Both the position numbers and the translations under genes were made by a program. Positions 10,201 to 39,935 of a stretch of 41,597 nt of DNA are shown here, one piece after another. Origin of the DNA: a virus; the IMG/VR virus record IMGVR_UViG_3300049225_000423, positions 1-41,597 of that record; one strand, given 5' to 3'. The stretch's first letter is position 1. Every line of letters starts with the position of its first letter. The notes beneath the pieces were generated by a model. The model saw nothing but the letters and a program-made list of their open reading frames with translations, was not told the origin of the DNA and did not search any database.

Positions 10201-13200
10201 ATGCCAAATTGGAAAAAAGTAGTACTTAGTGGAAGTAACGCTGAGCTAAATGAACTTAAATTAACAGGTCTTTCTACCCAAGGATCTGAAAACACAACAC
10301 TTGTAATTAATAGTGCCGGAGAAGTAGGTACAAGAGAAAATGCAGCATCCTCTGGTTCAAGTGGATCATCAGGTTCAAGTGGATCAAGTGGTTCTTCAGG
10401 ATCATCAGGTACTTCTGGTTCTAGTGGTTCTTCAGGCTCAAGTGGTTCTTCGGGTTCATCAGGTACTTCAGGTGTAAATGGAGGTACAATAGCAAGATTT
10501 AATGGATATGATGATGGTACTTTAAATACTACTAACTTTTCTACAGTTAATACAACAGCTTTTGTAAAGGTATCACATACCCAGTATGGTTTAGACCCTT
10601 CTATTAATACAAATTATTATACCCATACTAATGATAGTGATACAATTACTATTGATAATGATGGTTATTATATAATTAGTTCTAATGTTAATTTTTTAGT
10701 AGCAAATAGAGGTTCCTTAAGATCATCTATGCAGCAAAACCTTTTAATTAATGGTACAGCTGTTGACTCTTCTAAATCAGATACTTACTCAAGAGGTAGT
10801 GGTTATAATGATGAAGTTAATACATTAACAACACTATATGCTTACTTAAGTGCTAATGACACAGTAAAAATTGAAGTTGATGCTCATAAAATGGACACCT
10901 CAGGTACTGGGAGTGTTACTATACAAGATGCAGTAATTAATATTGCATTTATAACTGGAACAGCCGCTGCTGCTGGTAATGATGGTTCATCAGGTACTTC
11001 TGGTAGTTCAGGTTCAAGCGGTTCATCAGGATCAAGTGGTACATCAGGTAATGATGGTGATGATGGTTCATCTGGTACTTCTGGTTCTTCAGGTTCAAGT
11101 GGCTCTTCAGGTTCATCAGGTAACTCGGGATCATCAGGAACTTCAGGTAGTTCTGGATCATCTGGTTCTAGTGGCTCTTCAGGTAACTCAGGATCCTCAG
11201 GAACTTCAGGTTCAAGTGGTTCAAGTGGTTCATCAGGATCAAGTGGCTCCTCGGGTAACTCAGGTTCATCAGGAACATCTGGTTCTTCTGGTTCTAGTGG
11301 TTCTTCAGGATCATCAGGATCATCAGGTTCATCAGGTAACTCAGGTTCATCAGGAACTTCAGGTTCAAGTGGCTCATCAGGTTCTAGTGGTTCATCAGGA
11401 AATTCAGGTTCATCAGGAACTTCAGGATCATCCGGTAGTTCAGGCTCAAGTGGCTCAAGTGGTTCATCAGGCTCAAGTGGCACATCAGGTAATGATGGTG
11501 ATGATGGTTCATCTGGTACTTCCGGTTCTAGTGGCTCTTCAGGTTCTAGTGGCTCTTCAGGTTCAAGTGGCTCAAGTGGTTCATCAGGTTCCTCTGGTAC
11601 ATCTGGGCAAGATGGTAATTTTGGGGGTGCATCATTTGATTATACTTTTAGTACTTCTACTACAATTACAAATCCTGGAGGGGGCAATATAAGATTAAAC
11701 AACTCAACCCAATTTTCAGCTACATCAATGGCGATTAGTGAGGTTGATGACCAAGGGGAAAGTATTCAAAGTTTCTTACAAACAGTAGATAGTTCAACAT
11801 CAGCTGTAAAAGGTCACGTTAGATTATCTGATAAAGATGATGCAGGTGATTTTCTTTTATTTGCAATATCTGATTTAACAGACAATGGAGCTTGGTGGAC
11901 AATTAATATTAGTAATGAAGCATATGGGGGTAATAGTTTAACTAATGGTGAAGATATTATAGCATCGTTTGTAGTAACGGGTGATAAGGGTGATAGTGGC
12001 TCCAGTGGTACATCTGGTTCATCGGGCTCAAGTGGATCTTCAGGCTCAAGTGGTTCTTCAGGTTCTTCAGGTAACTCAGGCTCATCAGGAACTTCAGGTT
12101 CAAGTGGTTCTTCAGGTTCTTCAGGTTCATCAGGTTCAAGTGGAAATTCGGGCTCATCAGGAACATCAGGCTCTTCGGGTAGTTCAGGCTCTTCAGGCTC
12201 AAGTGGCTCTTCAGGTAACTCAGGTTCATCAGGAACTTCAGGATCATCAGGTAGTTCAGGCTCAAGTGGCTCCAGTGGCTCTTCAGGTACATCTGGTAAC
12301 TCAGGCTCATCAGGAACTTCAGGCTCATCAGGTAGTTCAGGTTCATCCGGTAGTTCAGGCTCAAGTGGTTCATCAGGAACTTCAGGATCATCAGGTTCTT
12401 CAGGCTCAAGTGGTTCTTCAGGTTCTTCAGGTAACTCAGGATCATCAGGAACTTCAGGCTCAAGTGGTTCTTCAGGTTCTTCAGGTTCATCAGGTTCAAG
12501 TGGTTCTTCAGGCAACTCAGGTTCATCAGGAACTTCAGGCTCAAGTGGCTCTTCGGGATCAAGTGGCTCATCAGGTTCTAGTGGTTCATCAGGAAATTCA
12601 GGTTCATCTGGTACATCAGGCTCTAGTGGCTCATCAGGTACTAGTGGATTATTGTCTTTAACAGGAACTACAAACAATGGTATAATTACTTATGATAGTA
12701 CAACGGGAGGTGGTAATGTAGAAGTTAATGTTACAGCTACTGCTGCAACATTCTGTTCACAAACCACTGCTTTTAATGTAACAGCCCAAGGTGCTAATTT
12801 CTGTACAGATCAATCAATTTTTGGTTGTAATAATAACTTTGGTAAAATAATTATTGCAGATGATTATTATGGGGGTGAATTAGCTATACTGACTGATAAT
12901 GATTATATCATTGGAGGACAAGTAGCTAATTGTGAAATGTCATATGCAGGAGTTGATCCATATAATGGAACTATAAAAGCTAATTTCCAAAATAGAACTG
13001 TTTGTCTAGGATGTACAAATTGTCATATTGTTGGAAGTAGTTATTCAACAATTGCAGGTGGAGTTTGTAATAAAAGTAATGGTTTAAATTCTTTTATTGG
13101 AGCAGGTATTCTAAATACATCATCAGCAGCTGATAGTTTTATAGGTGCAGGAAAGAACAATGAAATTACTGGTGTATGCGCAGCAATAGTAGGTGGTGAA

Positions 13201-14865
13201 GGTAATGAAAATGCTAGTATTAGAGGGTTTATAGGTGCGGGTAATGGAAATTCATTATTTACTAATGGTAGTGTAATAGTAGGAGGTAAAGGTAATTTTT
13301 CAAAAGGAGGAGATGCTTTTGACTTTATAGGAGGGGGTTTTAACAATTGTATAATTCCTTCCCTAAGTACTGCTTGTGGTAATGTTATTGTTGGTGGTAT
13401 GTGTAATAATAATACTAATGACTCCCATGTTTCATTCCTAGGAGGGGGTTTAGAAAATTGTACTAACGCCTTTGCTCAAGTTATTGGTGGAGGTACGAAT
13501 AATACTCCATTTGGAGAATATGATGTTATTGTAGGGGGTAAAGGAGGTTATTCAAAAGGAGGTAATTATTCTTTTATAGGTGGAGGTGCAGGTAATTTTA
13601 TAGAAACTGCTGGTTGCTCAGTTGTTGTTGGTGGTGAAACAAACTGTATAACAAATGGTATTTATTCAACTATTGGAGGTGGTCAAGGAAATAAAATCGA
13701 GTCAAACAGAGGATTTATAGGAGGAGGAGCTAGTAATAGAATTTGTACTAATTCTCATTGTAGTACTATTGGGGGAGGTTATTCTAATGAAATTGGTGCA
13801 AGCGATTGTTGGGGAACCATTGCTGGTGGATGTGATAATTCAGTCCAACAAGATTATGGTACTGTTGCAGGAGGTCGTCAAAACTGTGCAAGGGGTTCCT
13901 ATTCAACTGTTGGTGGTGGTTATAGTAATGACTCATCAAATCAATATAGTGTAACAGCTGGAGGACGTGACAACTGCTCCAATGGTAACTACTCCAGTAT
14001 TGGTGGTGGGTATGATAATTATGTTTCTAACACTTATGGTACAGTAGCTGGCGGTTATGGTAACTGTGCTAGAGGTGCTTGTAGTTCTGTTGGAGGAGGA
14101 TTTAGTAATGATACTCAAGGAACAGCCTCTCCTATTGGTGGAGGAAATGATAACACAATTTCCTCAGGAATTTCTCAAGCTGTTATTGCAGGGGGTGGTA
14201 AAAATACTGTCTCTGCTAATGGTGGGGCAATATTAGGAGGATGTTCAAATACTGTTTCATCAGGTCAAGGATTTATAGGGAGTGGGTGTGCAAATACAAA
14301 TAATGGTTGTATGAGTGGTATCATATCAGGAAAAAATAATAATATAAATAGCAAAACCTGTTCCTTTATTATTGGTACCGATATTACAGCTTTATCAAAT
14401 TGTACTACTTTTGTAAATAATTTTGCTTTCCATGCACATAATAATCAAACACCATATTTAGGAACTGCTGCTACCGCAGGTGAATTAATTTATATAGGTT
14501 CTTCAAGTGTGACAGCAGGAAATCTTTATTATTTATTAGAACCAGTATCAGGTACATCTTCATGGACCTTAGCGGATGCAGACGCAGCTTCTTCTTCAAC
14601 AAATATGCTCGCAATAGCTGCGGGAACTGGAAATTCAAATGCTGTAGGTATGATGATAAGAGGATTTGCTAGATTTACTTCAGTATTCAATCTTACAGGA
14701 GGAACTATAGGTCAACCATTATATGTTCATACAACAGCAGGAGCAATTACTCAAACTGCTCCTTCGGGAACAGGAGATGTTGTAAGAGTAGTAGGACATT
14801 TAATTGATGATTCTACTGAAGTAATTTACTTTAACCCAGATGGAGCTTGGGTAGAAATATCTTAA
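10201..14865 (+). CDS. Giant modular fibre: (Gly-Ser-Ser)n repeats, C1q-like domain, Cys-rich beta-roll, receptor-type C-terminus
   Basis: This is a 1554-residue mosaic. Residues 1-50 are the N-terminal module shared with the 8546 protein. GSS triplet tracts are at 52-91, 259-472 and 594-816. Residues 92-258 look like a C1q/TNF-type jelly roll (TITIDNDGYYIISSNVNFL, NLLINGT, VTIQDAVINIAFI). Residues 473-593 are a domain typical of phage collagen-like proteins (TNPGGGNIRLNN, then WWTINISN, leading to GDKGDSG). About 940-1395 is a YadA-head-like beta-roll of IGGG-x2-N and AGG-x2-N repeats with unusually many Cys. About 1415-1554 is the common fibre C-terminus (GQPLYVHTTAG, TGDVVRVVGH, IYFNPDGAWVEIS). 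It is probably the main trimeric adhesin and a candidate glycosylation substrate. Confidence 0.88.
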   Translation: MPNWKKVVLSGSNAELNELKLTGLSTQGSENTTLVINSAGEVGTRENAASSGSSGSSGSSGSSGSSGSSGTSGSSGSSGSSGSSGSSGTSGVNGGTIARFNGYDDGTLNTTNFSTVNTTAFVKVSHTQYGLDPSINTNYYTHTNDSDTITIDNDGYYIISSNVNFLVANRGSLRSSMQQNLLINGTAVDSSKSDTYSRGSGYNDEVNTLTTLYAYLSANDTVKIEVDAHKMDTSGTGSVTIQDAVINIAFITGTAAAAGNDGSSGTSGSSGSSGSSGSSGTSGNDGDDGSSGTSGSSGSSGSSGSSGNSGSSGTSGSSGSSGSSGSSGNSGSSGTSGSSGSSGSSGSSGSSGNSGSSGTSGSSGSSGSSGSSGSSGSSGNSGSSGTSGSSGSSGSSGSSGNSGSSGTSGSSGSSGSSGSSGSSGSSGTSGNDGDDGSSGTSGSSGSSGSSGSSGSSGSSGSSGSSGTSGQDGNFGGASFDYTFSTSTTITNPGGGNIRLNNSTQFSATSMAISEVDDQGESIQSFLQTVDSSTSAVKGHVRLSDKDDAGDFLLFAISDLTDNGAWWTINISNEAYGGNSLTNGEDIIASFVVTGDKGDSGSSGTSGSSGSSGSSGSSGSSGSSGNSGSSGTSGSSGSSGSSGSSGSSGNSGSSGTSGSSGSSGSSGSSGSSGNSGSSGTSGSSGSSGSSGSSGSSGTSGNSGSSGTSGSSGSSGSSGSSGSSGSSGTSGSSGSSGSSGSSGSSGNSGSSGTSGSSGSSGSSGSSGSSGSSGNSGSSGTSGSSGSSGSSGSSGSSGSSGNSGSSGTSGSSGSSGTSGLLSLTGTTNNGIITYDSTTGGGNVEVNVTATAATFCSQTTAFNVTAQGANFCTDQSIFGCNNNFGKIIIADDYYGGELAILTDNDYIIGGQVANCEMSYAGVDPYNGTIKANFQNRTVCLGCTNCHIVGSSYSTIAGGVCNKSNGLNSFIGAGILNTSSAADSFIGAGKNNEITGVCAAIVGGEGNENASIRGFIGAGNGNSLFTNGSVIVGGKGNFSKGGDAFDFIGGGFNNCIIPSLSTACGNVIVGGMCNNNTNDSHVSFLGGGLENCTNAFAQVIGGGTNNTPFGEYDVIVGGKGGYSKGGNYSFIGGGAGNFIETAGCSVVVGGETNCITNGIYSTIGGGQGNKIESNRGFIGGGASNRICTNSHCSTIGGGYSNEIGASDCWGTIAGGCDNSVQQDYGTVAGGRQNCARGSYSTVGGGYSNDSSNQYSVTAGGRDNCSNGNYSSIGGGYDNYVSNTYGTVAGGYGNCARGACSSVGGGFSNDTQGTASPIGGGNDNTISSGISQAVIAGGGKNTVSANGGAILGGCSNTVSSGQGFIGSGCANTNNGCMSGIISGKNNNINSKTCSFIIGTDITALSNCTTFVNNFAFHAHNNQTPYLGTAATAGELIYIGSSSVTAGNLYYLLEPVSGTSSWTLADADAASSSTNMLAIAAGTGNSNAVGMMIRGFARFTSVFNLTGGTIGQPLYVHTTAGAITQTAPSGTGDVVRVVGHLIDDSTEVIYFNPDGAWVEIS
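10354..10473 (+). repeat. First (GSS)n tract of the giant fibre
   Basis: These are Gly-Ser-Ser/Gly-Thr-Ser triplets directly after the N-terminal module, encoding residues 52-91. No proline is present. Confidence 0.95.
10975..11616 (+). repeat. Second (GSS)n tract of the giant fibre
   Basis: This encodes residues 259-472. It is mostly GSS with spaced GTS and GNS, and twice has the interruption GNDGDDG, as in phage collagen-like proteins. A higher-order unit of about ten triplets (GNS-GSS-GTS-GSS...) recurs. Confidence 0.95.
11980..12648 (+). repeat. Third (GSS)n tract of the giant fibre
   Basis: This encodes residues 594-816. It opens with GDKGDSG, the classic entry into phage collagen-like repeats, and then has higher-order GNSGSSGTSG units separated by runs of GSS. 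Confidence 0.95.
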
Positions 14866-14875
14866 AAATAATTTT

Positions 14876-15541
14876 ATGGCAGGATTTGACACAGGATATA
14901 AAGAAAGATCTCTTACTTTCGAAAGTGATAAAATTAAATATTCTAAAGACGGTAAAGAGTTTAACGTAATGATGGATTGGGAAACCCCAATCATGAAAAG
15001 ATCTGCCGAATGGGTTACTAATGGAGGTAGAGCAGAAAGCGTATTAGAATTAGGTTTTGGTATGGGTATATCAGCAGGATTTATACAAAACTTCCAACCA
15101 GACCAACATACAATAATAGAATTGCACCCAAATATAGTAGAACGAGCAGAAGAATATGCTACTCAAAGAAATAAGTATTATAGTAGGTCCAAAGCAACAG
15201 CTCATAAAAGAGTAACTATTTTAGGAGGTAAAAACTGGTATGATGAATTTGGAAAATCTTTTGAAAAATCAGGTTTACAGGAATTTGATGCTATTTTTAT
15301 AGATACTTATCAAGATACAAAGTTACATGAATTTAAAAACTATATCACTAAAATGTTAAAAAAAGGAGGCAGAATGACTTGGTGGAATCCAATGGAAGAT
15401 TTCATTCCAGACGAAACTACTAAAAATAGAAGAGGAGTTAGCTATGAATTAATTAGATTAAGTGATCATAAAATTAAGATTCCACAAAATGCATACCATA
15501 ATACAGATAAGTATTATATGCCAATGTATATAAGACAATAA
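14876..15541 (+). CDS. SAM-dependent methyltransferase of the GAMT/RMT2 type
   Basis: This 221-residue class I methyltransferase has MMDWETPIMKRSAEWVT, motif I VLELGFGMGIS (about 56-66), an IIELHPNIVERAEEYA segment (about 80-95), and FDAIFIDTYQ (about 137-146) followed by a KKGG turn. The same set of motifs (MMDWE, GFGMGI, IIEAHP, FDxIFxDT) characterises guanidinoacetate N-methyltransferase and the yeast arginine methyltransferase Rmt2. The gene lies ten bases downstream of the giant fibre and shares its transcript, which suggests a virion or fibre-related target. The real substrate is unknown, and a protein side-chain or a small guanidino compound are both possible. Confidence 0.8.
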   Translation: MAGFDTGYKERSLTFESDKIKYSKDGKEFNVMMDWETPIMKRSAEWVTNGGRAESVLELGFGMGISAGFIQNFQPDQHTIIELHPNIVERAEEYATQRNKYYSRSKATAHKRVTILGGKNWYDEFGKSFEKSGLQEFDAIFIDTYQDTKLHEFKNYITKMLKKGGRMTWWNPMEDFIPDETTKNRRGVSYELIRLSDHKIKIPQNAYHNTDKYYMPMYIRQ

Positions 15542-15545
15542 AATT

Positions 15546-16232: not shown

Positions 16233-16233
16233 T

Positions 16234-16262: not shown

Positions 16263-16285
16263 ACTAGTACTAAAAATAGGTTTTA

Positions 16286-17515
16286 ATGAATAATAAAATT
16301 AGTTGTACTATTGTATCTATTATTATAGGTAGAGAGTTTTCTATAGATAAACTCCTAGACTATTTTTGTAAACTAACCATACCTAATCAAATAAGTCATC
16401 TTAATTTAAATTTAGTTCTAGGTTGTAGTAATAATTTTACAAAACAACTTAAAAGTAAAATTAAAGAACTAAACCTATCTGACAAATATAATAAAATATC
16501 TTTTATAGAAGGTAATAGAAGGTGTCACCCTGATTTAAACTGGGAAGAATGGGAACAATATACCCGCAAAAAAGACACGCTTGTTAAACATGATTCTGCT
16601 CTACAAAATATAAATATAGGATTGCAATCGGTAGTAGATGGAGATTTTATCCACTTTGTAGATGATGATACCATTCCACCTTATTTTGCTTTACAAGATC
16701 TTTTTAATGCTTATCATAAAATAGAAAATTGCGGGATAGCAAGCGGAATTTATTTTAATAAAGAATGGTTAGGACCTACTATGGTTACAGAATATCATGA
16801 GACAAAAAGACGTATAGTAGCAAGCGTAAGAAAAGATAAATGGATAGAAACCTCTATAGATGACCTAACATATACAGATTATACAGATATAGGATTTACA
16901 GGAAATGGGTGTATGTTAATTTCAGTAGAGGATACTAAACAAATTTTACCTTTAACAGAAAATAGAGATTATTTTGATACTGATGCCCCCCCTGATTCTA
17001 AAATATGTTATAGAATAAGATTATTAGGGAAAAAAATAAGTATAGTTCCTTCTATAGTTTGTAAGCATTTAGATGGTAAAGGAAAACCAGTGGGGTTGTC
17101 AGAAAAATATTTAAAAAATATTAAAAATTCTGGTAAACCTAAAAAAATTCTTTTTATAAACTTTAATCCTTATGTAAATTATAAAAAACTAAGTTTAAAA
17201 TATGATTATACTATTGTATTAGCATTTGAAGAATTAATTAAGTCTAAAGATATAAATAAATTTAAAAAACTAATAGATTTTGATAATATTAAATTTATAA
17301 AAAAAAGTATAATTAATACAGTAAATAAATATCCCTTAGATTTTAAAATTAAACATGAGTTTAATATATTACTTACTTTACAAGAAATATACTCATATAT
17401 TAGTGATAAAAGTGAATATAAAATTTATTCCCACAGAACCAAACAAAATGATATAAATTTAGTAGCTACATTAGATAGTTCTAAATTAAGAAATTTATTA
17501 AATACAAAAATATAA
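16286..17515 (+). CDS. Glycosyltransferase, GT-A fold (GT2-like)
   Basis: This 409-residue protein has an N-terminal Rossmann-like strand (ISCTIVSIIIGREFS), a nucleotide-sugar/metal motif FVDDDTIPP (about 124-132), a central IGFTGNGCMLI acceptor region, and ICYRIRLLGKKISIVPSIVCKHL (about 243-265), typical of family 2 enzymes. The last about 130 residues are Lys/Ile-rich and not recognised. It opens the glycosyltransferase block and has its own non-late promoter motif. Donor and acceptor are unknown. In context it could extend a glycan begun by the heptosyltransferases. Confidence 0.75.
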   Translation: MNNKISCTIVSIIIGREFSIDKLLDYFCKLTIPNQISHLNLNLVLGCSNNFTKQLKSKIKELNLSDKYNKISFIEGNRRCHPDLNWEEWEQYTRKKDTLVKHDSALQNINIGLQSVVDGDFIHFVDDDTIPPYFALQDLFNAYHKIENCGIASGIYFNKEWLGPTMVTEYHETKRRIVASVRKDKWIETSIDDLTYTDYTDIGFTGNGCMLISVEDTKQILPLTENRDYFDTDAPPDSKICYRIRLLGKKISIVPSIVCKHLDGKGKPVGLSEKYLKNIKNSGKPKKILFINFNPYVNYKKLSLKYDYTIVLAFEELIKSKDINKFKKLIDFDNIKFIKKSIINTVNKYPLDFKIKHEFNILLTLQEIYSYISDKSEYKIYSHRTKQNDINLVATLDSSKLRNLLNTKI

Positions 17516-17516
17516 A

Positions 17517-17809: not shown

Positions 17810-17823
17810 TAAAATATTTCAAC

Positions 17824-18175: not shown

Positions 18176-19048
18176 ATGAACATAATATTCCAGATAGATG
18201 GAGGTTTAGGTAAATCTATTATGGCAACAGCCATGGTGCAGGTTATAAAGAAACGATATAAAAATTCTAATTTAATAGTTGTAACTGCTTACCCTGATGT
18301 ATTCTTAAACAACCCCCAGGTTAATAAAATATATAGACCTGAACAAATGAATGGGGCTTATCTTAAATATATTAAAGATCAGGATTGTAAAATTTTTATA
18401 GAAGATCCTTATCGCAATAATTCTTTTTTAACAGACAAAGAACATTTGTTTAAAACTTGGTGTAAAATTTATGGGTTACATTATAATAATGAACAACCCA
18501 AAATCTATTTAACACAACCCGAGTTAGATTATTTTTCTCCTTTTTATAAATTAGATAAACCTATTTTAGCCATACAAACAAATGGAGGACCTCAAGGTCA
18601 AGGTTTTCAATATTCATGGACAAGAGACATACCAGAACCTACTGTATTAAATGTTATTGATTATTATAAAAATGATTATACAATTATTCATATTAAAAGA
18701 AAAGACCAATATACCTATCCTGATACAATGCAAGCTTTAGATGGTTTTAGAAGTATTGCTATCTTACTTCAAATGTCTTCTAAGCGTTTATTAATAGATT
18801 CATTTTCTCAACATTTAGCAACAGCTATGAATATGAAATCCACTGTATGCTGGGTAGCTACTAAACCTAAAGTGTTTGGATATGAAATGCATGATAATAT
18901 CTTAGCAGAACCTTTTACAAAAGAACCAACATTACAAAACTCAGTTTATCAACCTTTTAATTTGGCACAAGATATCCACTCTATACCTTATAATAATTTA
19001 AGTGAAGTATTTGATGTAAATAAAATTATAACATCACTTAATAATTAA
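18176..19048 (+). CDS. GT9-like (heptosyltransferase-fold) glycosyltransferase with altered catalytic loop
   Basis: This 290-residue GT-B-type protein starts MNIIFQIDGGLGKSIMATAMVQVIKKRY, then has VVTAYPDVFLNNPQVNKIY (about 36-54), the N-terminal pattern of GT9 heptosyltransferases. It later has LQMSSKRLLIDSFSQHLATAMN (about 200-221), equivalent to the nucleotide-binding region. At the position of the GT9 catalytic Asp (S-L-G-D) it has Lys13 (GGLGK), so it may be inactive, use another base, or be a divergent subgroup. It precedes the large fusion enzyme by 51 nt and is part of the same block. Confidence 0.65.
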   Translation: MNIIFQIDGGLGKSIMATAMVQVIKKRYKNSNLIVVTAYPDVFLNNPQVNKIYRPEQMNGAYLKYIKDQDCKIFIEDPYRNNSFLTDKEHLFKTWCKIYGLHYNNEQPKIYLTQPELDYFSPFYKLDKPILAIQTNGGPQGQGFQYSWTRDIPEPTVLNVIDYYKNDYTIIHIKRKDQYTYPDTMQALDGFRSIAILLQMSSKRLLIDSFSQHLATAMNMKSTVCWVATKPKVFGYEMHDNILAEPFTKEPTLQNSVYQPFNLAQDIHSIPYNNLSEVFDVNKIITSLNN

Positions 19049-19099: not shown

Positions 19100-21373
19100 A
19101 TGATAAAAACACCTAAAATATTTGCACATGGTAGTTATGTAGGAACTACAGGTTATGCTAATCATACAAGAGCATTTTATAGAGAACTTTCTAATCTTTA
19201 TAACTTAAAAATAAGAAATTTTACAGTAGGTAAATCATGGGATGGCTATAAAGATGAACCCCATAACGGGGAAGAATATTTTGATGGGTTAGATAAAAAA
19301 TTACTTACTTCACAATATTTGTGGGAAGATGATAATTTAATTCATAAAGATATTTATACTAAATATCCTAATAATTTTGATCATAATGTCAATTTAGTTT
19401 TGTGTGAAACAAACCACCATGTATTTTACCAAGATTATCAAGGTCCAAAAATAGCTTATAATGTATGGGAAACAACTCGTCAACCTAAAACATTTTTTGA
19501 TCAATTATCTACATTTGATCAAGTTTGGGTTGCTTCTAAATGGCAAAGAGACTGTACTATTGAACAAGGAATCTCTCCAGATAAAGTAAAGGTTATTCCT
19601 GAAGCAGTAGATTCTACTATTTTTCACCCAAATAAAAAGGCTACACTTCCTGAATATGACGACGGGAGGTTTAAATTTACAATGTTTGGTCGGTGGGATT
19701 ATAGAAAATCTACTAAAGAGGTTATTGAGTCTTTTTTAGAAGAATTCGGTAAAGATGAACCCGTAGATTTAATATTATCTATAGACAATCATATGGCTAA
19801 GGATGATTTTGAATCTACTGAAGAAAGACTTAAACATTATGGTTTAGTTGACCCAAGATTAAAAATAAAACATTTCCCAACAAGAGAAGAATATATTAAG
19901 TACTTGCAAAAAGGTCATGTATTTTTATCTTGTGCTCGTGCTGAGGGATGGAATTTACCTTTAATTGAAGCAATGGCTTGTGGTACCCCTTCTATTTATT
20001 CAAATTGTAGTGCTCAATTAGAATTTGCAGAAGGTAAAGGATTGCCCGTAAAAATTAAAGGAACCATTCCTGCAATAGGAGGAGAATATAGTACATTTTC
20101 CCAATCTGATTTACCAGGGGAATTTTATTCACCTGATTTTAATGATTTAAAAAGAGTAATGAGGGATGCTTATGTTAATTATAAACAACATAAAAAACAA
20201 GCAATAAAAGAATCAGTTGAAATAAGAAAAAAGTTTACTTGGGAAAATGCCGCCCAAATAGCTAAAAAAGAAATAGATTATTTAGTAAATAATATACCTC
20301 CTAATAATATTGAAATTAGTTTTAATGAAGGTCCTAAAGTAGAAATTAAAGGGTCTAATTTTGAAAAGTACAAAGTAGAATTTATAAATGGAGAGACAAA
20401 TGAAATAATTCATTCTTCTACTATTACTAATAATATGTGGGCTAAATGTAATAAATCTTATTTTATTCCCTGGGTTATCAAATTAAATGGTAAAGTAATT
20501 CATAAATTAGATCTTAAAGATAAAAACGTAAAAATAACTTTAGATTCAAAATCAATTGGTGACACAATAGCATGGACCCCTCAAGTTATAGAATTTGCTA
20601 AAAAACATCAATGTAAAGTTATAGTTAGTACCTTTCATAACAATTGGTTTAAAAACCTCCCAGAATATAAAAATATTAAATTTATCAAACCTGGGGAATC
20701 TTGTTCTGCCTATGCTCAATATAAAATAGGATGGTTTAAAAATTTAGATGGTAATTTTAAAAATTTTGATGATCACCCAACTCAACCAAATACAATTCCT
20801 TTGATACAAACATCAACTGATATTTTAGGGTTAGAATATAAAGAACTTAATTATGGGGTTGATTTTAACATTGGTGAAAAACCTATCCAAGGAAAATATG
20901 TAGTATTTGGTCCTCAATCAACATCGGGGTGTAAAGAATGGACTTATGATAATTGGGTTGAATTAGCTAAAATGTTTAAAAATAAAAACTACCAAGTAGT
21001 TATACTTTCTTCAACCCCATATACTATCCCAGGTACAACTAATATTCAAGGTAGACCATTAGATACAGTAGCTACTTATTTAACTTATGCTGATAAATTT
21101 ATTGGATTAGGATCAGGTTTATCATGGTTAAATTGGGCTTTAAAAAAACATACAATTATGATTAATGGGTTTAGTGAAAGAGATCATGAATTTACTTCTT
21201 ATATTACTCGTGTAATGAATGATAATGCATGTATTCCTTGTTGGACTAATCCTAATTTTACATTTGATCCTGGAGATTGGGATTGGTGTCCTATTTGGAA
21301 AGGAACAAATAAACAGCATATTTGTCAAAAATCTATTACCCCTACTCAAGTATTCAATTCAAGTAACATATGA
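19100..21373 (+). CDS. Fusion glycosyltransferase: GT4 domain + TibC/Aah-type autotransporter O-heptosyltransferase
   Basis: This 757-residue protein has two enzymes in one chain. Residues 1-400 form a GT4-type GT-B domain with IPEAVDSTIFHP (about 167-178), FGRWDYRKS (about 195) and the E-x7-E motif EGWNLPLIEAMACGTPS (284-300). Residues 402-757 match the autotransporter strand-loop-strand O-heptosyltransferase family, with NNMWAKCNKSYFIPWVIKL, GDTIAW (Asp488 in the conserved loop), VIVSTFHNNWF, PLIQTSTDILGLEY, FIGLGSGLSWLNWAL and GDWDWCP. The iron-finger cysteines are Cys711, 714, 730 and 742. TibC uses ADP-heptose to modify Ser in repeat proteins. It overlaps the next gene by ATGA. Confidence 0.87.
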   Translation: MIKTPKIFAHGSYVGTTGYANHTRAFYRELSNLYNLKIRNFTVGKSWDGYKDEPHNGEEYFDGLDKKLLTSQYLWEDDNLIHKDIYTKYPNNFDHNVNLVLCETNHHVFYQDYQGPKIAYNVWETTRQPKTFFDQLSTFDQVWVASKWQRDCTIEQGISPDKVKVIPEAVDSTIFHPNKKATLPEYDDGRFKFTMFGRWDYRKSTKEVIESFLEEFGKDEPVDLILSIDNHMAKDDFESTEERLKHYGLVDPRLKIKHFPTREEYIKYLQKGHVFLSCARAEGWNLPLIEAMACGTPSIYSNCSAQLEFAEGKGLPVKIKGTIPAIGGEYSTFSQSDLPGEFYSPDFNDLKRVMRDAYVNYKQHKKQAIKESVEIRKKFTWENAAQIAKKEIDYLVNNIPPNNIEISFNEGPKVEIKGSNFEKYKVEFINGETNEIIHSSTITNNMWAKCNKSYFIPWVIKLNGKVIHKLDLKDKNVKITLDSKSIGDTIAWTPQVIEFAKKHQCKVIVSTFHNNWFKNLPEYKNIKFIKPGESCSAYAQYKIGWFKNLDGNFKNFDDHPTQPNTIPLIQTSTDILGLEYKELNYGVDFNIGEKPIQGKYVVFGPQSTSGCKEWTYDNWVELAKMFKNKNYQVVILSSTPYTIPGTTNIQGRPLDTVATYLTYADKFIGLGSGLSWLNWALKKHTIMINGFSERDHEFTSYITRVMNDNACIPCWTNPNFTFDPGDWDWCPIWKGTNKQHICQKSITPTQVFNSSNI

Positions 21374-22254
21374 GGAGAAAAGTTTTAGTTAATATATTAT
21401 CAAATTCCTTAGGGGATACAATTATAGCTATTCCCTATATAAATCAATATAGGTTAGATCAAAATTGTGATGTTTATGTTAAAGTAAATCCTAAGTTTCA
21501 ATTTTTATTTAAAGAATCTTACCCAAACTTAAATTTAACAAATACAACAGAAGGATTTGAGGAAATAATTCCAGTAGATTATAATTTTAAAACTAATATT
21601 CAAGAAGGGTTTGCTTTAGATTTAGGTTATAAAAAATGGAATTACATTCAACCTAAATTAAATATTACCCCTAAAAAACGTCCCATAAAAGGAAAATATG
21701 TTGTTATAAGTGTGCATTCTACTTCACAATTAAAATATTGGAATCACCCTAAAGGAAAAAGTGTACAGGGTACTCCTCTTTATTGGACTGAATTGTGTAG
21801 AATATTAAGAAAAAAAGGTTTTACTCCTGTAGTAGTAGAACGTGACGAATTATTTGGGTTAGCCCCTTATTGGAACGGGCTACCAAAAAAGTCTAATAAT
21901 AAAACACAAGTATCTTTAGAAGATACTGTTAATTATATACAACATGCCGAATTTTTTATAGGACTATCATCAGGTTTAACTTGGTTAGCTCATGCCCTAG
22001 AAAAAAAAGTAGTAATGATATCTAATTTTACAGAAGATTGGCATGAAATTCCTTTAGATTATCCTAATTATAAACGAATTACCAATAAATCAGTATGTCA
22101 TGGATGTTTTAACAAAGTAGGAATTGAGCATAACTTTGATTTTGGAGATTGGTATTGGTGTCCTAAACATAAAAATACACCACGCCAATTTGAATGTCAT
22201 ACTTCAATAACCCCAAATATGGTTATAGAACAAATAGATGATTGGTTAGAGTAA
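21370..22254 (+). CDS. TibC/Aah-type protein O-heptosyltransferase, free-standing
   Basis: This 294-residue protein has VNILSNSLGDTIIAIPYI (Asp16 in the catalytic loop), VVISVHSTSQLKYWNHPKGKS, LEDTVNYIQHAEFFIGLSSGLTWLAHAL and GDWYWCP. Four cysteines (243, 246, 264, 276) have the spacing of the iron finger of autotransporter heptosyltransferases. It is shorter than TibC because it lacks the N-terminal beta-rich thumb. The ATG overlaps the stop of the fusion enzyme (ATGA), so the two are translationally coupled. It likely transfers heptose to a protein acceptor. The Ser-rich phage fibres are the obvious candidates. Confidence 0.87.
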   Translation: MRRKVLVNILSNSLGDTIIAIPYINQYRLDQNCDVYVKVNPKFQFLFKESYPNLNLTNTTEGFEEIIPVDYNFKTNIQEGFALDLGYKKWNYIQPKLNITPKKRPIKGKYVVISVHSTSQLKYWNHPKGKSVQGTPLYWTELCRILRKKGFTPVVVERDELFGLAPYWNGLPKKSNNKTQVSLEDTVNYIQHAEFFIGLSSGLTWLAHALEKKVVMISNFTEDWHEIPLDYPNYKRITNKSVCHGCFNKVGIEHNFDFGDWYWCPKHKNTPRQFECHTSITPNMVIEQIDDWLE

Positions 22255-22626: not shown

Positions 22627-25296
22627 ATGGCAGAAACATTAATATCTCCAGGTGTAATAGCAAGAGAAAACGATCAATCTTTTGTTACTTCACAGCCCAT
22701 TGAAAGAGGTGCGGCAATTATAGGACCAACTGTAATTGGTCCTGTAGAAAGACCAACTCTAATTAGTTCATTTAGTTCATACCAAGCATTATTTGGTGGG
22801 GCTCTATTAAGTGGTTCTAACGAGTACACATATCTTACTTCTATTGCAGCAAACCAATATTTTCAAAATGGTGGGACTTCACTTTTAGTAACAAGAGTAA
22901 CTTCGGGATCTTTTAGCTCAGCTACTTCTACAACAATTCAAAATAATTTAGAATCTCCAACTGGTGGATTAATTGGAAATATCTTTAGTGGATATAAAAC
23001 CTCAACAGGTGGAGGTAGTGGTTCATCAGCCCCTGGAACTTATACAAATGTTCCATTAGTAACAGATACAGGAGCTGGATCAAGCGCTGAAGTAACAGTA
23101 ACAACTAGTAATAGTAATGGTATTTTATTTACTGGTACTCCTTTTACCTCCATAATTGTACAATCAGGTTCAAATATGGTAGCTGGACCATATACTGATG
23201 TATCAGGTACTGGTGGAGATGGAACAGGTGCATTATGGGATATTACAGTTAGTACAGGAGATACATTTTTACCCGGAGCTGAAGTAACAGCTGGTGGTAC
23301 TACAATTACTGGGGTTACTCCTTCTACAACTACTACAAACATTAACGTATCTGATTTAATTTCAAATGGTGGTAGTGTTTCAGGTGGTGGATCTGGAGGT
23401 GTAGTAACCGTAACCAGTGATGGTGCAGGCGAAATTACAAAAATTACACTAGTATCTGGAGGATCTAGTTATACAAATACTTCAGTTATTAATGTTACGG
23501 CTGCAGGTATTAATGCTTTAGCAGGCGCTCCTTTAGGATCAGGTGCTGCAGGTGGTGCTGCAACATTTTCTATCCAAAATGCTGATTTAGCAGGAACAAT
23601 TAACGCAGGTGATATTACACTAGATGCTGGTAATACTACTTTAGGGTCAGGATATAAAGTTGGAGATCAAATCTCAATCCCAGCTACAAGTTTAGGTGCT
23701 TCAAGTGGAGATGCTCTTATTTTCCAAATCACCCAACCTCAAATATTAACTGAGATTTCAGGTGTTTCAATCACAGAAGATGGATTAGGTTATGCAGATG
23801 GTGATGAAGTAAGTATTGCAAGTGGGACAGCTGGTGTATTTTCAACAGATCCCGTTTTTGTGTTAACTGATGCAATGATTGAAAATCAAACAGCTTTTGT
23901 ATTAGAAACAATTTCTGAAGGTGAAATTATGAATAATACATACCCTGCTGGGTCTGATACAAGTGGTCTTGAAATAGCAGGTGGAGCTTTAACTAGTGGT
24001 TCATCTCTTAACGTAAGATGGGAAATTACAAGTGTTAATACATCTTCAGGTGTATTTTCATTAGCTATTAGAAGAGGTAATGATAATACTAATAATAAAG
24101 TAGTATTAGAAACATATAATAATATTTCATTAGATCCATTTTCTCCAAATTATATTTCAAGAGCAATTGGTGATATATCTACTAATCTAGTAACAGAAGG
24201 AGTAGATACCTTTTTACAAGAATCAGGTTCATTTGCGCAAATTTCTAACTATGTTAGAGTAAGACAAGTAAATACCCCAACACCAAACTATTTTAATAAT
24301 GATGGAACTGCAAAATCTGAATATACAGCTTCTTTACCTATTATAGGATCAGGTTCATTTGATGGAGCTGTTGGTAGAAATATTCCTGTAGGAAGAGCAG
24401 CTAATTTTTATCAAGATATTAATAATATTGATACTCAAGGATTAATAGGATCCGATTATAATAATGCAATTGCTTTATTATCTAGTCAAGATGATTACCA
24501 GTACAATGTACTATCAGTACCTGGTTTAACTAATCAAGACCATGCGGGTCAAATCACTACTGTAATGAATAATTCAATTACACGAGGTGATAATATTGCA
24601 GTAATTGATCTAGTAAGATATAACCAACCAATTGCTACAGTAACAAACCAAGCAGGAGGTATTGATAATAGCTATACAGCTACCTATTGGCCATGGTTAC
24701 AAACAGTTGATCCAAATTCTGGTCAATTAGTTTATATACCTGCTTCTACGTTTATACCAGGAGTATATGCGTTTACAGATGCTTCAAGTGATCCATGGTT
24801 TGCACCCGCAGGTATTACTAGAGGTGGAATGGGACAAGTTGTTCGAGCTGAAAGAAAATTAACTTCTAATAATAGAGATACTTTATATGAAGCAAATGTT
24901 AATCCAATTGCTACATTCCCACAACAAGGAGTAGTAGTATTTGGACAGAAAACATTACAAAAAGCTGCTTCTGCATTAGATAGAGTAAATGTACGTAGAT
25001 TATTAATTACACTTAAAGAATATATTTCTCAAATTGCAGATAATTTAGTATTTGAAGCTAATACAATTGCAACTAGACAAAATTTCTTAACCCAAGTTAA
25101 CCCATATCTAGAATCAGTACAACAAAGACAAGGATTATATGCTTTTAAAGTAGTAATGGATGAAACAAACAATACACCAGATGTAATAGATAGAAATGAG
25201 TTAGTAGGACAAATTTTCTTACAACCAACTAGAACAGCTGAATTTATTATGTTAGATTTCAATGTATTACCAACTGGAGCAACTTTTCCAGCATAA
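22627..25296 (+). CDS. 18: Tail sheath protein gp18 with a large surface insertion
   Basis: The 889-residue product has the family N-terminus (LISPGVIARENDQSFV, then GAAIIGPTVIGPVERPTLISSF and the ANQYFQNGGTSLLVTRV region). Its C-terminus is also typical (NVRRLLITLKEYISQIADNLVFE, RQNFL, LVGQIFLQPTRTAEFIMLDFN). It forms the contractile sheath. T4 gp18 has 659 residues. The excess is a Gly/Ser/Thr-rich beta insertion at about 117-425 with a repeated Y-x(2-4)-GD-x-(V/I)-x-I unit (SGYKVGDQISIPA, LGYADGDEVSIAS), presumably on the outer surface of the tail. Confidence 0.95.
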   Translation: MAETLISPGVIARENDQSFVTSQPIERGAAIIGPTVIGPVERPTLISSFSSYQALFGGALLSGSNEYTYLTSIAANQYFQNGGTSLLVTRVTSGSFSSATSTTIQNNLESPTGGLIGNIFSGYKTSTGGGSGSSAPGTYTNVPLVTDTGAGSSAEVTVTTSNSNGILFTGTPFTSIIVQSGSNMVAGPYTDVSGTGGDGTGALWDITVSTGDTFLPGAEVTAGGTTITGVTPSTTTTNINVSDLISNGGSVSGGGSGGVVTVTSDGAGEITKITLVSGGSSYTNTSVINVTAAGINALAGAPLGSGAAGGAATFSIQNADLAGTINAGDITLDAGNTTLGSGYKVGDQISIPATSLGASSGDALIFQITQPQILTEISGVSITEDGLGYADGDEVSIASGTAGVFSTDPVFVLTDAMIENQTAFVLETISEGEIMNNTYPAGSDTSGLEIAGGALTSGSSLNVRWEITSVNTSSGVFSLAIRRGNDNTNNKVVLETYNNISLDPFSPNYISRAIGDISTNLVTEGVDTFLQESGSFAQISNYVRVRQVNTPTPNYFNNDGTAKSEYTASLPIIGSGSFDGAVGRNIPVGRAANFYQDINNIDTQGLIGSDYNNAIALLSSQDDYQYNVLSVPGLTNQDHAGQITTVMNNSITRGDNIAVIDLVRYNQPIATVTNQAGGIDNSYTATYWPWLQTVDPNSGQLVYIPASTFIPGVYAFTDASSDPWFAPAGITRGGMGQVVRAERKLTSNNRDTLYEANVNPIATFPQQGVVVFGQKTLQKAASALDRVNVRRLLITLKEYISQIADNLVFEANTIATRQNFLTQVNPYLESVQQRQGLYAFKVVMDETNNTPDVIDRNELVGQIFLQPTRTAEFIMLDFNVLPTGATFPA

Positions 25297-36343: not shown

Positions 36344-36358
36344 ATAGGTTCGTATATT
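36330..36358 (+). promoter_or_regulatory. Putative early/middle promoter (GTGGAG-N17-TATATT) for the polymerase-like gene
   Basis: The -10-like TATATT (36353-36358) is preceded by TTCG exactly as at 16257 and 39947. The -35-like half (GTGGAG, 36330-36335) overlaps the end of the previous coding region and matches only at the GGA core. The gene starts 18 nt downstream. Confidence 0.4.
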
Positions 36359-36376
36359 AGGGTAAAATAAGGTTAT

Positions 36377-38093: not shown

Positions 38094-38106
38094 AGTAAAA
38101 AAGGTT

Positions 38107-38499
38107 ATGAAAATTTGGGTAAATGGTTGTTTTGATATTCTTCATAGAGGACATTTTGAATTATTTAATTTTGCAAAATCATTAGGTGATATATTAATCG
38201 TTGGGATAGATTCTGATGAAAAAATAGCTAGTGATAAAGGTCCTAATAGACCCTACAATAATCTAGAAGATAGGGTTTATGCTTTAGAAAGTTTAAAAGC
38301 TATAGATAAAGTAATGGTCTTCGATAATCGTGAACATTTAGAATGGTTAGTATCTTCTGTTTCTCCTGATATTATAGTAGTAGGAAGTGATTGGAAAGGT
38401 AAAGAAATAGTAGGAGGAGATCATGCTCGAGAAATTATATATTTTGATCGTATAGGTAATTATTCAACAACAGACATTTTATTAAATGAGAGAAAGTAA
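38107..38499 (+). CDS. hldC: Heptose-1-phosphate adenylyltransferase-like (HldC / RfaE domain II)
   Basis: This 130-residue nucleotidyltransferase has VNGCFDILHRGHFELFNFAKSLGD (about 4-27, with the HxGH motif as HRGH), LIVGIDSD, GPNRPYNNLEDRVYALESL, DIIVVGSDWKG and a C-terminal YSTTDIL. This corresponds closely to the C-terminal domain of HldE (NGVFDILHAGH, SRPVNPLEQR, STTNII). It would join D-glycero-D-manno-heptose-1-phosphate to AMP, giving ADP-heptose; CDP- or GDP-linked products cannot be ruled out. It is the first gene of a four-gene overlapping cassette. Confidence 0.83.
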   Translation: MKIWVNGCFDILHRGHFELFNFAKSLGDILIVGIDSDEKIASDKGPNRPYNNLEDRVYALESLKAIDKVMVFDNREHLEWLVSSVSPDIIVVGSDWKGKEIVGGDHAREIIYFDRIGNYSTTDILLNERK

Positions 38500-38836
38500 A
38501 TTACACTCAGAAGGACAGCAAAAAGCTTTTGTTGATATAGATGAAACGATATGTTTTTATAAAGATAAAAGGATATATGAGTTAGCTATCCCTAATAAAA
38601 CAAATATTAATAAAATTAACAAACTTAAAGAAAAAGGATGGCATATAACTTACTATACTGCCAGAGGAGGCGCAAGCAAAATTGATTATACTAAATTAAC
38701 TTTAAAACAATTAAAAGAATGGGGATGTTTTTTTGATGATCTTGTGGTGGGTTATAGAAAAGATATTACATTACCAGTAAAACCATCTTATGATCTAATT
38801 ATAGATGATAAGGCAAAACGTATAGAAGAATTATGA
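38486..38836 (+). CDS. HAD-superfamily phosphatase, candidate heptose-bisphosphate phosphatase step
   Basis: This 116-residue minimal HAD protein has the nucleophile motif FVDIDETI (about 15-22), a motif-II-like YYTARGG (about 57-63), a Lys in VVGYRKDITLPVKPSYD, and the acidic LIIDDK (about 105-110). The DxDxT start and C-terminal DD identify a phosphatase or related HAD enzyme. GmhB, the phosphatase of ADP-heptose synthesis, is also a HAD enzyme, so a role there fits the neighbours but is inferred. It overlaps the preceding gene by 14 nt and the next by 4 (ATGA). Confidence 0.72.
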   Translation: MRESKLHSEGQQKAFVDIDETICFYKDKRIYELAIPNKTNINKINKLKEKGWHITYYTARGGASKIDYTKLTLKQLKEWGCFFDDLVVGYRKDITLPVKPSYDLIIDDKAKRIEEL

Positions 38837-39195
38837 TTATACAACCTAAAATAGTACAAAAAGGGTGGGGTGAAGAAGTTTGGATCCATAATGATGAAGA
38901 ATATTGTGGTAAACTACTTAGATTTTTTAAAGCAGGGAATAAATTTTCTTTACATTACCATATTATTAAAAAAGAATCATGGTATGTAGGTAAAGGTAGT
39001 TTTGAATATATTAAATTAGATACTGAAAAAGGAATAGAACATAGTACTATCATTAAAGAAGGAACTTGTTTAACAATTGAAAGAGGATCCCCACATCAAT
39101 TAATAGCCTTAGAAGATATGTCAGAAATATTTGAAGTATCTACCCAACATTTTGACGAAGATAGTTATAGAATTAGAATAGGAAATACGTTATGA
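38833..39195 (+). CDS. Cupin-fold protein (sugar isomerase/epimerase-like)
   Basis: This 120-residue cupin begins MIIQPKIVQKGWGEEVWIHNDEEYCGKLLRFFKAG, continues SLHYHIIKKESWYVGKGSFEY (the His-x-His...Glu metal motif and G-x6-G turn, about 36-56), and has a second box GSPHQLIAL. It resembles cupins of the mannose-6-phosphate isomerase type 2 group that often accompany nucleotide-sugar genes. It is coupled to both neighbours by ATGA overlaps. Its reaction is unknown. It might act on heptose phosphates. Confidence 0.7.
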   Translation: MIIQPKIVQKGWGEEVWIHNDEEYCGKLLRFFKAGNKFSLHYHIIKKESWYVGKGSFEYIKLDTEKGIEHSTIIKEGTCLTIERGSPHQLIALEDMSEIFEVSTQHFDEDSYRIRIGNTL

Positions 39196-39935
39196 GAATA
39201 TTAGTAATAGGCGATAGTTGTCTTGATAAGTTTATTTATGGTGAATGTAATCGAATATGCCCTGAAGCACCCGTTCCTGTATTTAATCCTATTAATTCTA
39301 CTAAAAATGAAGGAATGGCTAAAAATGTTTTTAATAATTTAAAAAGTTTAGCCCCAAATTGGGAAATTGATTTTATTACAAATCAATCCCCAGCAGTAAA
39401 AACCCGATTAGTAGATATAAAAACTAATCAAATGTTAGTTAGAATTGATGATAATGATAAATGTTCTAGATTTAGTGGGTTAAATAAGTTAGAAGAGTAT
39501 GATATTGTTATTATTAGCGATTATGATAAAGGATTTTTAACTAAAGATGATATTAAATACATTTTAGATAAATACCCTTTAACTTTTATTGATTCCAAAA
39601 AAATATTTGGAGAATGGGTTATGAATGCTTCATTTATAAAAATTAACCAACCAGAATACGAAAAAAATAAGGATAATTTAATTGATTATAAGGGTCAATT
39701 AATCGTTACACTTGGAGAAAAAGGGGTTCAGTGGGGTGATATGATACACCCCCCTTCTAGGAAAGCTGAAGTATCCGATTTATCAGGAGCTGGAGATACA
39801 TTTTTTGCTGCTTTTATATATTATTATTTATCCCACCAAAGTGTAAGTAAAAGTATACATTTCGCACAAAATTGTTCTCTTGAAGTTATAGAAAAAAAAG
39901 GTGTAGTAGTAGTAGAAAATAATTTGGATGTCTAA
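39192..39935 (+). CDS. hldA: D-glycero-D-manno-heptose-7-phosphate kinase-like (HldA / RfaE domain I, PfkB family)
   Basis: This 247-residue PfkB-type kinase begins RILVIGDSCLDKFIYGECNRICPEAPVPVF, almost the signature of HldE domain I (GDVMLDRYWYG, RISPEAPVPV). It also has GMAKNVFNNLKSL, VRIDDND, VIISDYDKGFL, and the C-terminal catalytic loop DLSGAGDTFFAAF (about 196-208). It would phosphorylate heptose-7-phosphate to the 1,7-bisphosphate. It is shorter than the usual about 310 residues, mainly in the middle, but all key motifs remain. In bacteria HldA and HldC are often fused as HldE; here they are separated by the HAD and cupin genes. Confidence 0.83.
   Translation: MRILVIGDSCLDKFIYGECNRICPEAPVPVFNPINSTKNEGMAKNVFNNLKSLAPNWEIDFITNQSPAVKTRLVDIKTNQMLVRIDDNDKCSRFSGLNKLEEYDIVIISDYDKGFLTKDDIKYILDKYPLTFIDSKKIFGEWVMNASFIKINQPEYEKNKDNLIDYKGQLIVTLGEKGVQWGDMIHPPSRKAEVSDLSGAGDTFFAAFIYYYLSHQSVSKSIHFAQNCSLEVIEKKGVVVVENNLDV

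What the first reader, a model, noticed from the sequence alone, without database searches (positions are those of the whole stretch)
10201..39935. Phage-encoded O-heptosylation system: Ser-rich fibres + TibC-like heptosyltransferases + ADP-heptose genes
Three parts fit together. (1) Two fibres carry long Gly-Ser-Ser/Gly-Thr-Ser tracts. (2) Two enzymes at 19100-22254 match the autotransporter O-heptosyltransferase family (TibC/Aah), including the four-Cys iron finger; known members transfer heptose from ADP-heptose to Ser in repeat proteins. (3) A cassette at 38107-39935 encodes HldC- and HldA-like enzymes with a HAD phosphatase and a cupin. I know of no described phage with such a self-contained set. 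Glycosylation could stiffen or protect the fibres, shield them, or tune receptor binding. GmhA and HldD equivalents are not in the window and may come from the host or elsewhere in the genome. The link between parts is inference.
Basis: partly seen in the sequence, partly recalled or inferred. Interest (0 to 1): 0.95.

Follow-up and report, generated by a model that had tools for sequence, protein, structure and literature searches.

The report
Phage enzymes that sugar-coat tail fibres
A marine T4-like phage carries relatives of a bacterial enzyme that hangs heptose sugars on serines, next to fibres made of serine-rich collagen-like repeats, and the same pairing recurs in many other phages and even in bacteria, which points to sugar-coated phage fibres and suggests what phage heptose genes may be for.

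Summary
Both genes at 19100-22254 score above the curated cut-off of the TibC/Aah O-heptosyltransferase family (223.4 and 207.1 bits; cut-off 200) and keep the catalytic Asp and the four-Cys iron finger; the first is predicted to fold like TibC. Both fibres carry long Gly-X-Ser tracts, which Pfam reads as collagen-like. The 38107-39935 cassette encodes heptose-kinase- and heptose-adenylyltransferase-like enzymes, both below family cut-offs.

The new evidence is comparative. In a scan of viral contigs for Gly-(Ser/Thr)-(Ser/Thr) tracts, 20 of 50 records carry a TibC-like gene, against 0 of 44 records found with a Gly-Pro-X pattern. In 7 of 8 bacterial loci that look chromosomal, found without selecting for tracts, a TibC-like gene lies within 1 kb of a gene for a secreted- or lipoprotein-looking Gly-Thr-Ser-repeat protein. 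This makes the tracts the likeliest acceptors.

"Self-contained" is overstated: GmhA is absent, the cassette is rare among TibC-positive phages, and cyanophages carry its kinase without TibC. Arg286, the adenine contact of TibC, is replaced in both window enzymes, and the oligomerising thumb is not recognisable in the first. Some TibC-positive phages show no tract. No chemistry has been shown. I rate it a new variant of a known kind.

The parts
8546..9673 (+). smaller fibre with a G-X-Ser tract (53 triplets); candidate acceptor
10201..14865 (+). large fibre, 1554 aa, G-X-Ser tracts (14+72+75 triplets) and a C-terminal glycine-rich repeat that looks like a beta-roll (by eye); candidate acceptor
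14876..15541 (+). putative O-methyltransferase (PF01596 E 9e-4, below cut-off); possible glycan modifier
16286..17515 (+). protein without a Pfam match; glycosyltransferase only by eye
   Evidence: no match; inference
18176..19048 (+). GT9-like protein: no Pfam or NCBIfam match, Foldseek tops are GT9/WaaF/WaaC, but the model is poor (pLDDT 57)
19100..21373 (+). GT4-type domain (res 188-308) fused to TibC-type heptosyltransferase domain (res 401-753)
21370..22254 (+). second TibC-type heptosyltransferase, aligning from TibC residue 97, so without the N-terminal beta-barrel
22627..25296 (+). tail sheath: context, places the enzymes in the structural module
38107..38499 (+). heptose-1-phosphate adenylyltransferase-like (HldC-like)
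38486..38836 (+). HAD-type phosphatase-like; no GmhB model matched
38833..39195 (+). WbuC-like cupin (29.7 bits, cut-off 42)
39192..39935 (+). heptose-7-phosphate kinase-like (HldA-like), 247 aa against a model of 315 positions

Best explanation
The phage encodes its own glycosylation module for its collagen-like fibres. The two TibC-type enzymes transfer a sugar, most likely heptose from a nucleotide-heptose, to Ser in the Gly-X-Ser tracts of the 8546 and 10201 fibres in the host cytoplasm before virion assembly. The GT4 domain fused to the first enzyme, the GT9-like protein at 18176 and the methyltransferase-like protein at 14876 probably extend or cap the glycan. The hld-like cassette boosts the nucleotide-heptose pool; the host supplies the missing steps. 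The sugar probably stiffens and solubilises a proline-free collagen-like shaft. Shown by computation: family, predicted fold, most active-site residues, the iron finger and gene association. Inferred: acceptor, sugar, extension and function.
For: Family. TibC as nearest structure by sequence and, for the first enzyme, by fold (4rb4, E 4.9e-26, TM 0.80 of the target). In 67 distinct phage TibC-type domains the Asp110 position is Asp in 66 (one gap), Thr226 is Thr or Ser in 67, Lys230 and Trp305 are kept in 67, and all four Cys in 58. Association: 20 of 50 tract records against 0 of 44 control records (Fisher 4e-7). In T4-like records chosen by capsid protein: TibC+tract+ 6, TibC+ only 2, tract+ only 2, neither 21 (Fisher 9e-4); both tract-only records end in the fibre or at most 1.8 kb after the stretch seen. 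Of eight records of 19 kb or more found by TibC similarity alone, seven hold a tract match, two of them a single one. A tract ORF lies within 5 kb of TibC in 12 of the 20 TibC+ tract records (crude expectation 5.4). Bacteria: 7 of 8 loci judged chromosomal have a tract ORF within 1 kb of TibC, where the partner has a tract but no phage fibre head. The tract criterion finds 0 of 79 control viral loci. The TibC paper reports Ser, not Thr, as the modified residue (PMC4358343, passages).
Against: No chemistry. Arg286, which contacts the adenine in TibC and is needed there, is Val/Thr in the window and Arg in only 6 of 67 phage domains. The thumb needed for the TibC ring is not recognisable in the first enzyme. 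Of 31 TibC+ records among 35 searched, 11 hold no tract match: G003, G012, G019, G026-G032 and W03; some are fragments, but G032 (77 kb) and W03 (636 kb) are long. Two more are in the capsid-chosen set. In all 13 sheath-bait loci that show both the 7115 homologue and a TibC gene before the sheath, that interval holds no tract ORF (the 10 kb flank shuts out loci with long fibres). Of the tract records 30 of 50 have no TibC match; many are fragments. hld-like genes are rare among TibC+ records. Records are related, so p-values overstate independence.
Confidence: 0.68

Rival explanations
1. The enzymes act on host lipopolysaccharide or O-antigen, changing the surface during infection to exclude other phages.
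For: Print already reads glycosyltransferases near tail fibres of pelagimyophages this way, and lists rfaE among their LPS-type genes (PMC7029224, passages). GT9 is the LPS heptosyltransferase family. Kinase homologues sit in 35 phage records, mostly cyanophages, and TibC matches only 4 phage records, two of them shared.
Against: Both enzymes score far better as TIGR04414 than as LPS heptosyltransferase I (29.5 and 26.6 bits against cut-off 185.3) and keep the iron finger. TibC genes track Gly-Ser tracts in viruses and bacteria.
Confidence: 0.12
2. The acceptor is not the Gly-X-Ser tract but another virion part: the beta-roll-like repeats at the end of the 10201 fibre (closer to the strand-loop-strand acceptors of TibC), another S/T-rich repeat protein, or the sheath near the genes.
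For: TIGR04414 is named for strand-loop-strand acceptors. In many sheath-bait loci a TibC-type gene lies a few genes or less upstream of the sheath, also where no tract is seen. A TibC+ contig without tracts, G032, encodes a different S/T-rich repeat protein.
Against: The bacterial partners whose sequence I read have G-T-S or similar tracts without such glycine-rich fibre heads, and tracts are absent from 79 control loci. The S/T-rich example would widen rather than replace the acceptor class.
Confidence: 0.13
3. The enzymes do glycosylate the tracts, but with a donor other than ADP-heptose (another nucleotide or another sugar).
For: Arg286, the adenine contact, is lost in 61 of 67 phage domains and in 9 of 15 loci of the genome scan; most TibC+ records show no hld-like gene.
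Against: Thr226, Lys230, Trp305 and Asp110 are kept. The window and a few relatives carry hld-like genes. The STTR5 motif tied to CDP-/UDP-heptose synthesis is not in the window's HldC-like protein (sequence), though says it is not strictly needed.
Confidence: 0.2
4. The hld-like cassette is unrelated to the TibC enzymes and serves another need; the pairing in this window is coincidental.
For: It lies 16 kb away next to gp32 and UvsX; 33 of 35 phage records with the kinase have no TibC match; it is not clearly commoner in TibC+ than in TibC- tract records (kinase 2 of 20 against 1 of 30; transferase 2 of 20 against 2 of 30).
Against: In L097 HldC-, HAD- and HldA-like genes lie directly between the TibC gene and the small ORF before the sheath; in G003 a TibC gene and hld-like genes share a 45 kb contig; LR756501 has TibC and a kinase match.
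Confidence: 0.4

Closest known systems
BAHT family: TibC (4rap/4rb4) and AAH, TIGR04414
   Same: family score over cut-off, fold (first enzyme), catalytic Asp, Thr226/Lys230/Trp305, four-Cys iron finger, gene near a repetitive Ser-rich protein
   Different: phage-encoded, fused to GT4, paired in tandem; Arg286 lost; thumb not recognisable in the first; second copy has no beta-barrel; partner is a collagen-like fibre, not an autotransporter
Virion glycosylation of mycobacteriophages (Freeman 2023, seen only as cited in PMC12619734)
   Same: glycans on capsid and tail proteins of phages
   Different: there the C-termini of capsid and tail-tube subunits; enzyme class not compared here
Viral NDP-heptose enzymes (Tang et al., seen only through PMC11461863 and PMC11573728)
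   Same: virus-borne heptose kinase and nucleotidyltransferase type genes
   Different: no role was known in viruses; here a candidate acceptor and transferase lie in the same record
Riftia cuticle collagen (stability tied to glycosylated Thr; as cited in PMC11766948)
   Same: a sugar at the helix-stabilising positions in place of hydroxyproline would be the same trick
   Different: animal collagen, galactose-type sugar (recalled), Thr not Ser

Membership tests
BAHT / TIGR04414 | score over curated cut-off (200 bits) | tested here: met
   223.4 and 207.1
BAHT / TIGR04414 | TibC fold | tested here: met
   19100 model against 4rb4/4rap, E 4.9e-26, 27% identity, TM 0.80 of target; 21370 not modelled
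BAHT / TIGR04414 | four-Cys iron finger (Cys339/342/358/370) | tested here: met
   both window proteins; 58 of 67 phage domains
BAHT / TIGR04414 | catalytic Asp110 and Thr226, Lys230, Trp305 | tested here: met
   both window proteins
BAHT / TIGR04414 | Arg286 (adenine contact) | tested here: not met
   Val and Thr in the window; Arg in 6 of 67
BAHT / TIGR04414 | beta-hairpin thumb with hydrophobic tip (Phe265, Val266) for the dodecamer | tested here: not met
   gap in the first enzyme; the second keeps a longer loop, inconclusive
BAHT / TIGR04414 | N-terminal beta-barrel | tested here: met
   19100: strands 403-469 in the model, PF21129 E 3.6e-4 below cut-off. Not met in 21370, which aligns from TibC residue 97
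BAHT / TIGR04414 | neighbouring autotransporter partner | tested here: not met
   where a repetitive partner was seen it is a collagen-like fibre or a secreted-looking repeat protein
BAHT / TIGR04414 | transfer of heptose to Ser | not testable with these tools
   needs biochemistry
ADP-heptose pathway | kinase (TIGR02198) and adenylyltransferase (TIGR02199) over cut-off | tested here: not met
   119.9 of 345 and 107.8 of 181.5; clear relatives all the same
ADP-heptose pathway | isomerase GmhA | tested here: not met
   0 in the window; 2 of 20 records searched
ADP-heptose pathway | phosphatase GmhB | tested here: inconclusive
   HAD protein present, no GmhB model rings
ADP-heptose pathway | epimerase HldD | not tested
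   may not be needed: TibC itself uses ADP-D,D-heptose (PMC4358343)

The most novel reading that the evidence does not exclude
TibC-type enzymes are, over much of their range, not autotransporter enzymes but the glycosylation arm of proline-free collagens: phages and Gram-negative bacteria both pair them with Gly-X-Ser repeat proteins, and the sugar at the Y position takes the place of hydroxyproline in holding a triple helix together. Phage heptose genes would then exist to build virion fibres.
Probability: 0.35. Interest if true: 0.92.

Novelty: new variant of a known kind. Interest (0 to 1): 0.8.

Why it matters
A commentary by the discoverers of viral nucleotide-heptose enzymes says their role in viruses is unsolved (PMC11573728, section read). 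This locus offers a concrete, testable role: building a glycan on virion fibres. It also moves a transferase family known from virulence autotransporters into phages and into methanotroph loci with a new kind of acceptor, and suggests how collagen-like phage shafts without proline could be made stable. My paper searches (open-licence PMC only; listings capped, titles and abstract openings seen, passages of a few) showed no report of heptosylated phage fibres or phage-encoded TibC-type enzymes.

Tried and rejected
CDP-/UDP-heptose supply by the STTR5 motif: considered because Arg286 is lost, then dropped, since the published motif is (F/L)XXGRSTT and the window's HldC-like protein reads NYSTT there. 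A Y-position difference between TibC+ and TibC- tracts: none evident; Ser dominates Y in most loci of both groups. Sheath insert length as a TibC correlate: no consistent pattern by eye. Fold of 18176: model too poor (pLDDT 57) to name beyond GT9-like. Mel-JY01 639 aa 'cytidylyltransferase like protein' as an HldE: only a borderline PF01467 match, and neither hld model rings in that genome. Phage Thanatos paper: its heptosyltransferase is the host's receptor gene.

Rows dropped before counts. One search listed 80 of 120 stretches. One search also listed 80 of 120; the controls are all 44 new rows of at least 20 kb. L111 appears in both scans; it is TibC+ and was counted with the tract set only. 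The control pattern is its own reverse complement and I did not check its reading frame. The 50-triplet split (19 of 35 against 1 of 15) was chosen; 31 of 80 loci, those of at least 20 kb, with L418 dropped as a likely copy of L417; three of the 31 records (G001, G016, G023) were already known. In one search identical and partial domains were dropped. 'Judged chromosomal' for eight of the 15 loci (L493-L498, L500, L502) is by eye from neighbours; L490-L492 show fibre, sheath or other phage-like genes, and L499, L501, L503 and L504 were unclear or phage-like. L500 is a 4.9 kb MAG contig. L496's tract fails the strict pattern but passes the one. 'Secreted- or lipoprotein-looking' is by eye from the N-termini. 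The cluster count (21 of 32 clusters with a tract within 5 kb) includes loci chosen for tracts and is not an unbiased rate.
Full report
What the window is. It is a 41,597-base IMG/VR virus record, probably a fragment. It reads as the structural module of a T4-like myovirus: gp23 capsid (PF07068), sheath, gp32-like (PF08804), and PhoH-, tube- and UvsX-like genes that I named by eye. The closest named capsid proteins are from Flavobacterium phage immuto, 55.8% identical, so a Bacteroidota host is likely but not shown.

The enzymes. The product of 19100-21373 has a GT4-type domain (PF00534, residues 188-308) and then a TibC-type domain (TIGR04414, residues 401-753, 223.4 bits). The product of 21370-22254 is a second TibC-type enzyme (207.1 bits). 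The curated cut-off is 200. TibC is the best hit among solved-structure sequences (1.3e-36 and 4e-33). An AlphaFold2 model of the first protein (mean pLDDT 80.8) matches TibC chains at ranks 1 to 21; the best has 380 columns, 27% identity and TM 0.80 of the target. The eLife TibC paper (PMC4358343; passages) names Asp110, Thr226, Lys230, Arg286 and Trp305 as catalytic or ligand-binding, Cys339/342/358/370 as the iron finger, and a thumb (Phe265, Val266) that builds the ring. I aligned 67 distinct phage domains, the window's two among them, with TibC. Asp110 is Asp in 66 and a gap in one; Thr226 is Thr or Ser in 67; Lys230 and Trp305 are kept in 67; all four Cys are kept in 58. Arg286 is Arg in only 6; in the window it is Val and Thr. 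That residue contacts the adenine, so the base specificity of the phage enzymes is open. The position that sets stereoselectivity (Pro300 in TibC, Ser in AAH, which takes both ADP-heptoses) is Gly and Ser in the window. The thumb is not recognisable in the first enzyme.

The fibres. Both are collagen-like by Pfam. Their G-X-Y runs hold 53 and 161 triplets with Ser at Y in 98% and 94%; proline is not among the residues listed at X or Y.

Do tracts and enzymes belong together? I made four tests. First, I scanned viral contigs for a DNA pattern of eight G-(S/T)-(S/T) triplets and searched 50 records of at least 20 kb for TIGR04414: 20 of 50 match, 19 over the cut-off. A scan for a Gly-Pro-X pattern gave 44 control records of at least 20 kb: 0 of 44 match. 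Of records whose fetched stretch holds 50 or more in-frame triplets 19 of 35 match, of the others 1 of 15 (threshold chosen afterwards). Second, in 12 of the 20 a tract ORF lies within 5 kb of the TibC gene, against about 5.4 expected from contig lengths (crude). Third, among T4-like records chosen by capsid similarity only, 6 have both, 2 have TibC only, 2 have tracts only and 21 have neither. The two tract-only records end in the fibre or at most 1.8 kb beyond the stretch seen. Fourth, I searched bacterial and archaeal genomes with a pattern drawn from the iron finger, not from tracts: 15 loci. Eight look chromosomal, and in seven of these (L493, L495, L496, L497, L498, L500, L502) the TibC gene lies 13 to 962 bases from an ORF for a secreted- or lipoprotein-looking protein with GTSG-, GSSG- or GTAG-type tracts. 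Six of these seven enzymes (not L496) were scanned and score 301.8 to 327.3 bits in TIGR04414. The tract criterion finds nothing in 79 control viral loci and in the more distant 55 of 80 T4-like loci, and 10 of all 80. The records are related to each other, so I read the p-values as strong ordering, not as exact odds.

Exceptions. In the first set of 35 records, gathered by TibC and sheath similarity, 31 have TibC and 20 have tracts; all 20 tract records are TibC+, 11 TibC+ records have no tract match, and the 4 TibC- records have none. Seven of the 11 (G026-G032, e.g. L085, L088, L099) belong to T4-like phages with a single-domain TibC gene before the sheath; in the loci I read, a separate GT4 gene precedes it. 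In all 13 sheath-bait loci that show both the 7115 homologue and TibC, the interval has no tract ORF; six loci with that interval and no TibC have none either (loci with long fibres exceed the 10 kb flank). G032 encodes at its contig end a different Ser/Thr-rich repeat protein, 64% Ser+Thr, near a GT9-like gene. So the acceptor class may be wider than G-X-Ser. Of the tract records 30 of 50 showed no TibC match.

The heptose cassette. 38107 and 39192 are clear but divergent relatives of HldE's two halves. The kinase has relatives in 35 phage records, mostly cyanophages; TibC matches only LR756501, LR756503, LR756504 and Microcystis phage Mel-JY01. Among TibC+ relatives the cassette is rare: the kinase model rings in 3 of 35 records (G003, G031, W02) and in 2 of 20 TibC+ against 1 of 30 TibC- tract records; the transferase model in 3 of 35 (one weak, G032) and 2 of 20 against 2 of 30. 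But in L097 (G031) the order is TibC, HldC-like (81% identical to the window), HAD (77%), HldA-like (44%), small ORF, sheath, and G003 holds TibC and hld-like genes in one contig. GmhA is absent from the window and found in 2 of 20 records searched. So the phage seems to top up a host pathway rather than carry it whole. TibC uses ADP-D,D-heptose, so HldD need not be missed.

How it probably works. Late in infection the TibC-type enzymes load sugar on Ser of the fibre tracts; fused or neighbouring enzymes finish the glycan. Relatives support a longer glycan: the Mel-JY01 protein joins GT4 and TibC domains and is annotated 'methyltransferase FkbM', though Pfam finds no such domain in it; another GT4-TibC protein (L371) does have an FkbM domain and a 1240 aa one (L074) a PIG-L deacetylase domain. 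Glycosylated threonine is reported to dominate the helix-stabilising positions of Riftia cuticle collagen (cited title in PMC11766948), which is why I favour shaft stability over shielding; this is inference.

Filing. By score, fold, iron finger and four of five active-site positions the enzymes belong to the TIGR04414 sequence family. Arg286 and the thumb, which the TibC paper calls conserved and needed, are not met, and the partner is not an autotransporter. I therefore say they work like BAHT enzymes and are divergent relatives, not canonical members.

Noticed in passing
L039 6815-8453 (L045 and L046 look like copies): In T4-like relatives without TibC, the slot between fibre and sheath holds a sulfotransferase, an APS kinase and a nucleotidyltransferase-like gene (domains tested on L039 only): perhaps a different, sulfate-based fibre or glycan modification.
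   Followed up: partly
L386 18039-19265 (-), L488, L489: S/T-rich repeat protein of the type STTTTFNTSRTTYFNTSQ at the end of a TibC+ contig; three loci found in viral contigs, one of them the same contig.
   Followed up: partly
L022, L027, L029, L030, L058, L066, L071, L072, L376: Nine phage TibC-type domains have lost all four iron-finger cysteines together while keeping Asp110, Thr226, Lys230 and Trp305.
   Followed up: no
L074 1807-5526: GT4-TibC fusion of 1240 aa with a C-terminal PIG-L type deacetylase domain, which suggests an N-acetyl sugar in the glycan.
   Followed up: no
window 22627-25296: The sheath protein varies from about 570 to 889 aa among close relatives, apparently through an insert of variable length.
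   Followed up: no
window 31869-35501: Protein of 1210 aa, by position in the baseplate region, with an Amidase_2 domain near its C-terminus.
   Followed up: no
LR756504 (W03) 430182-430640: A huge-phage genome with a TibC match also has a GmhA over its curated cut-off, but no kinase or transferase match.
   Followed up: no
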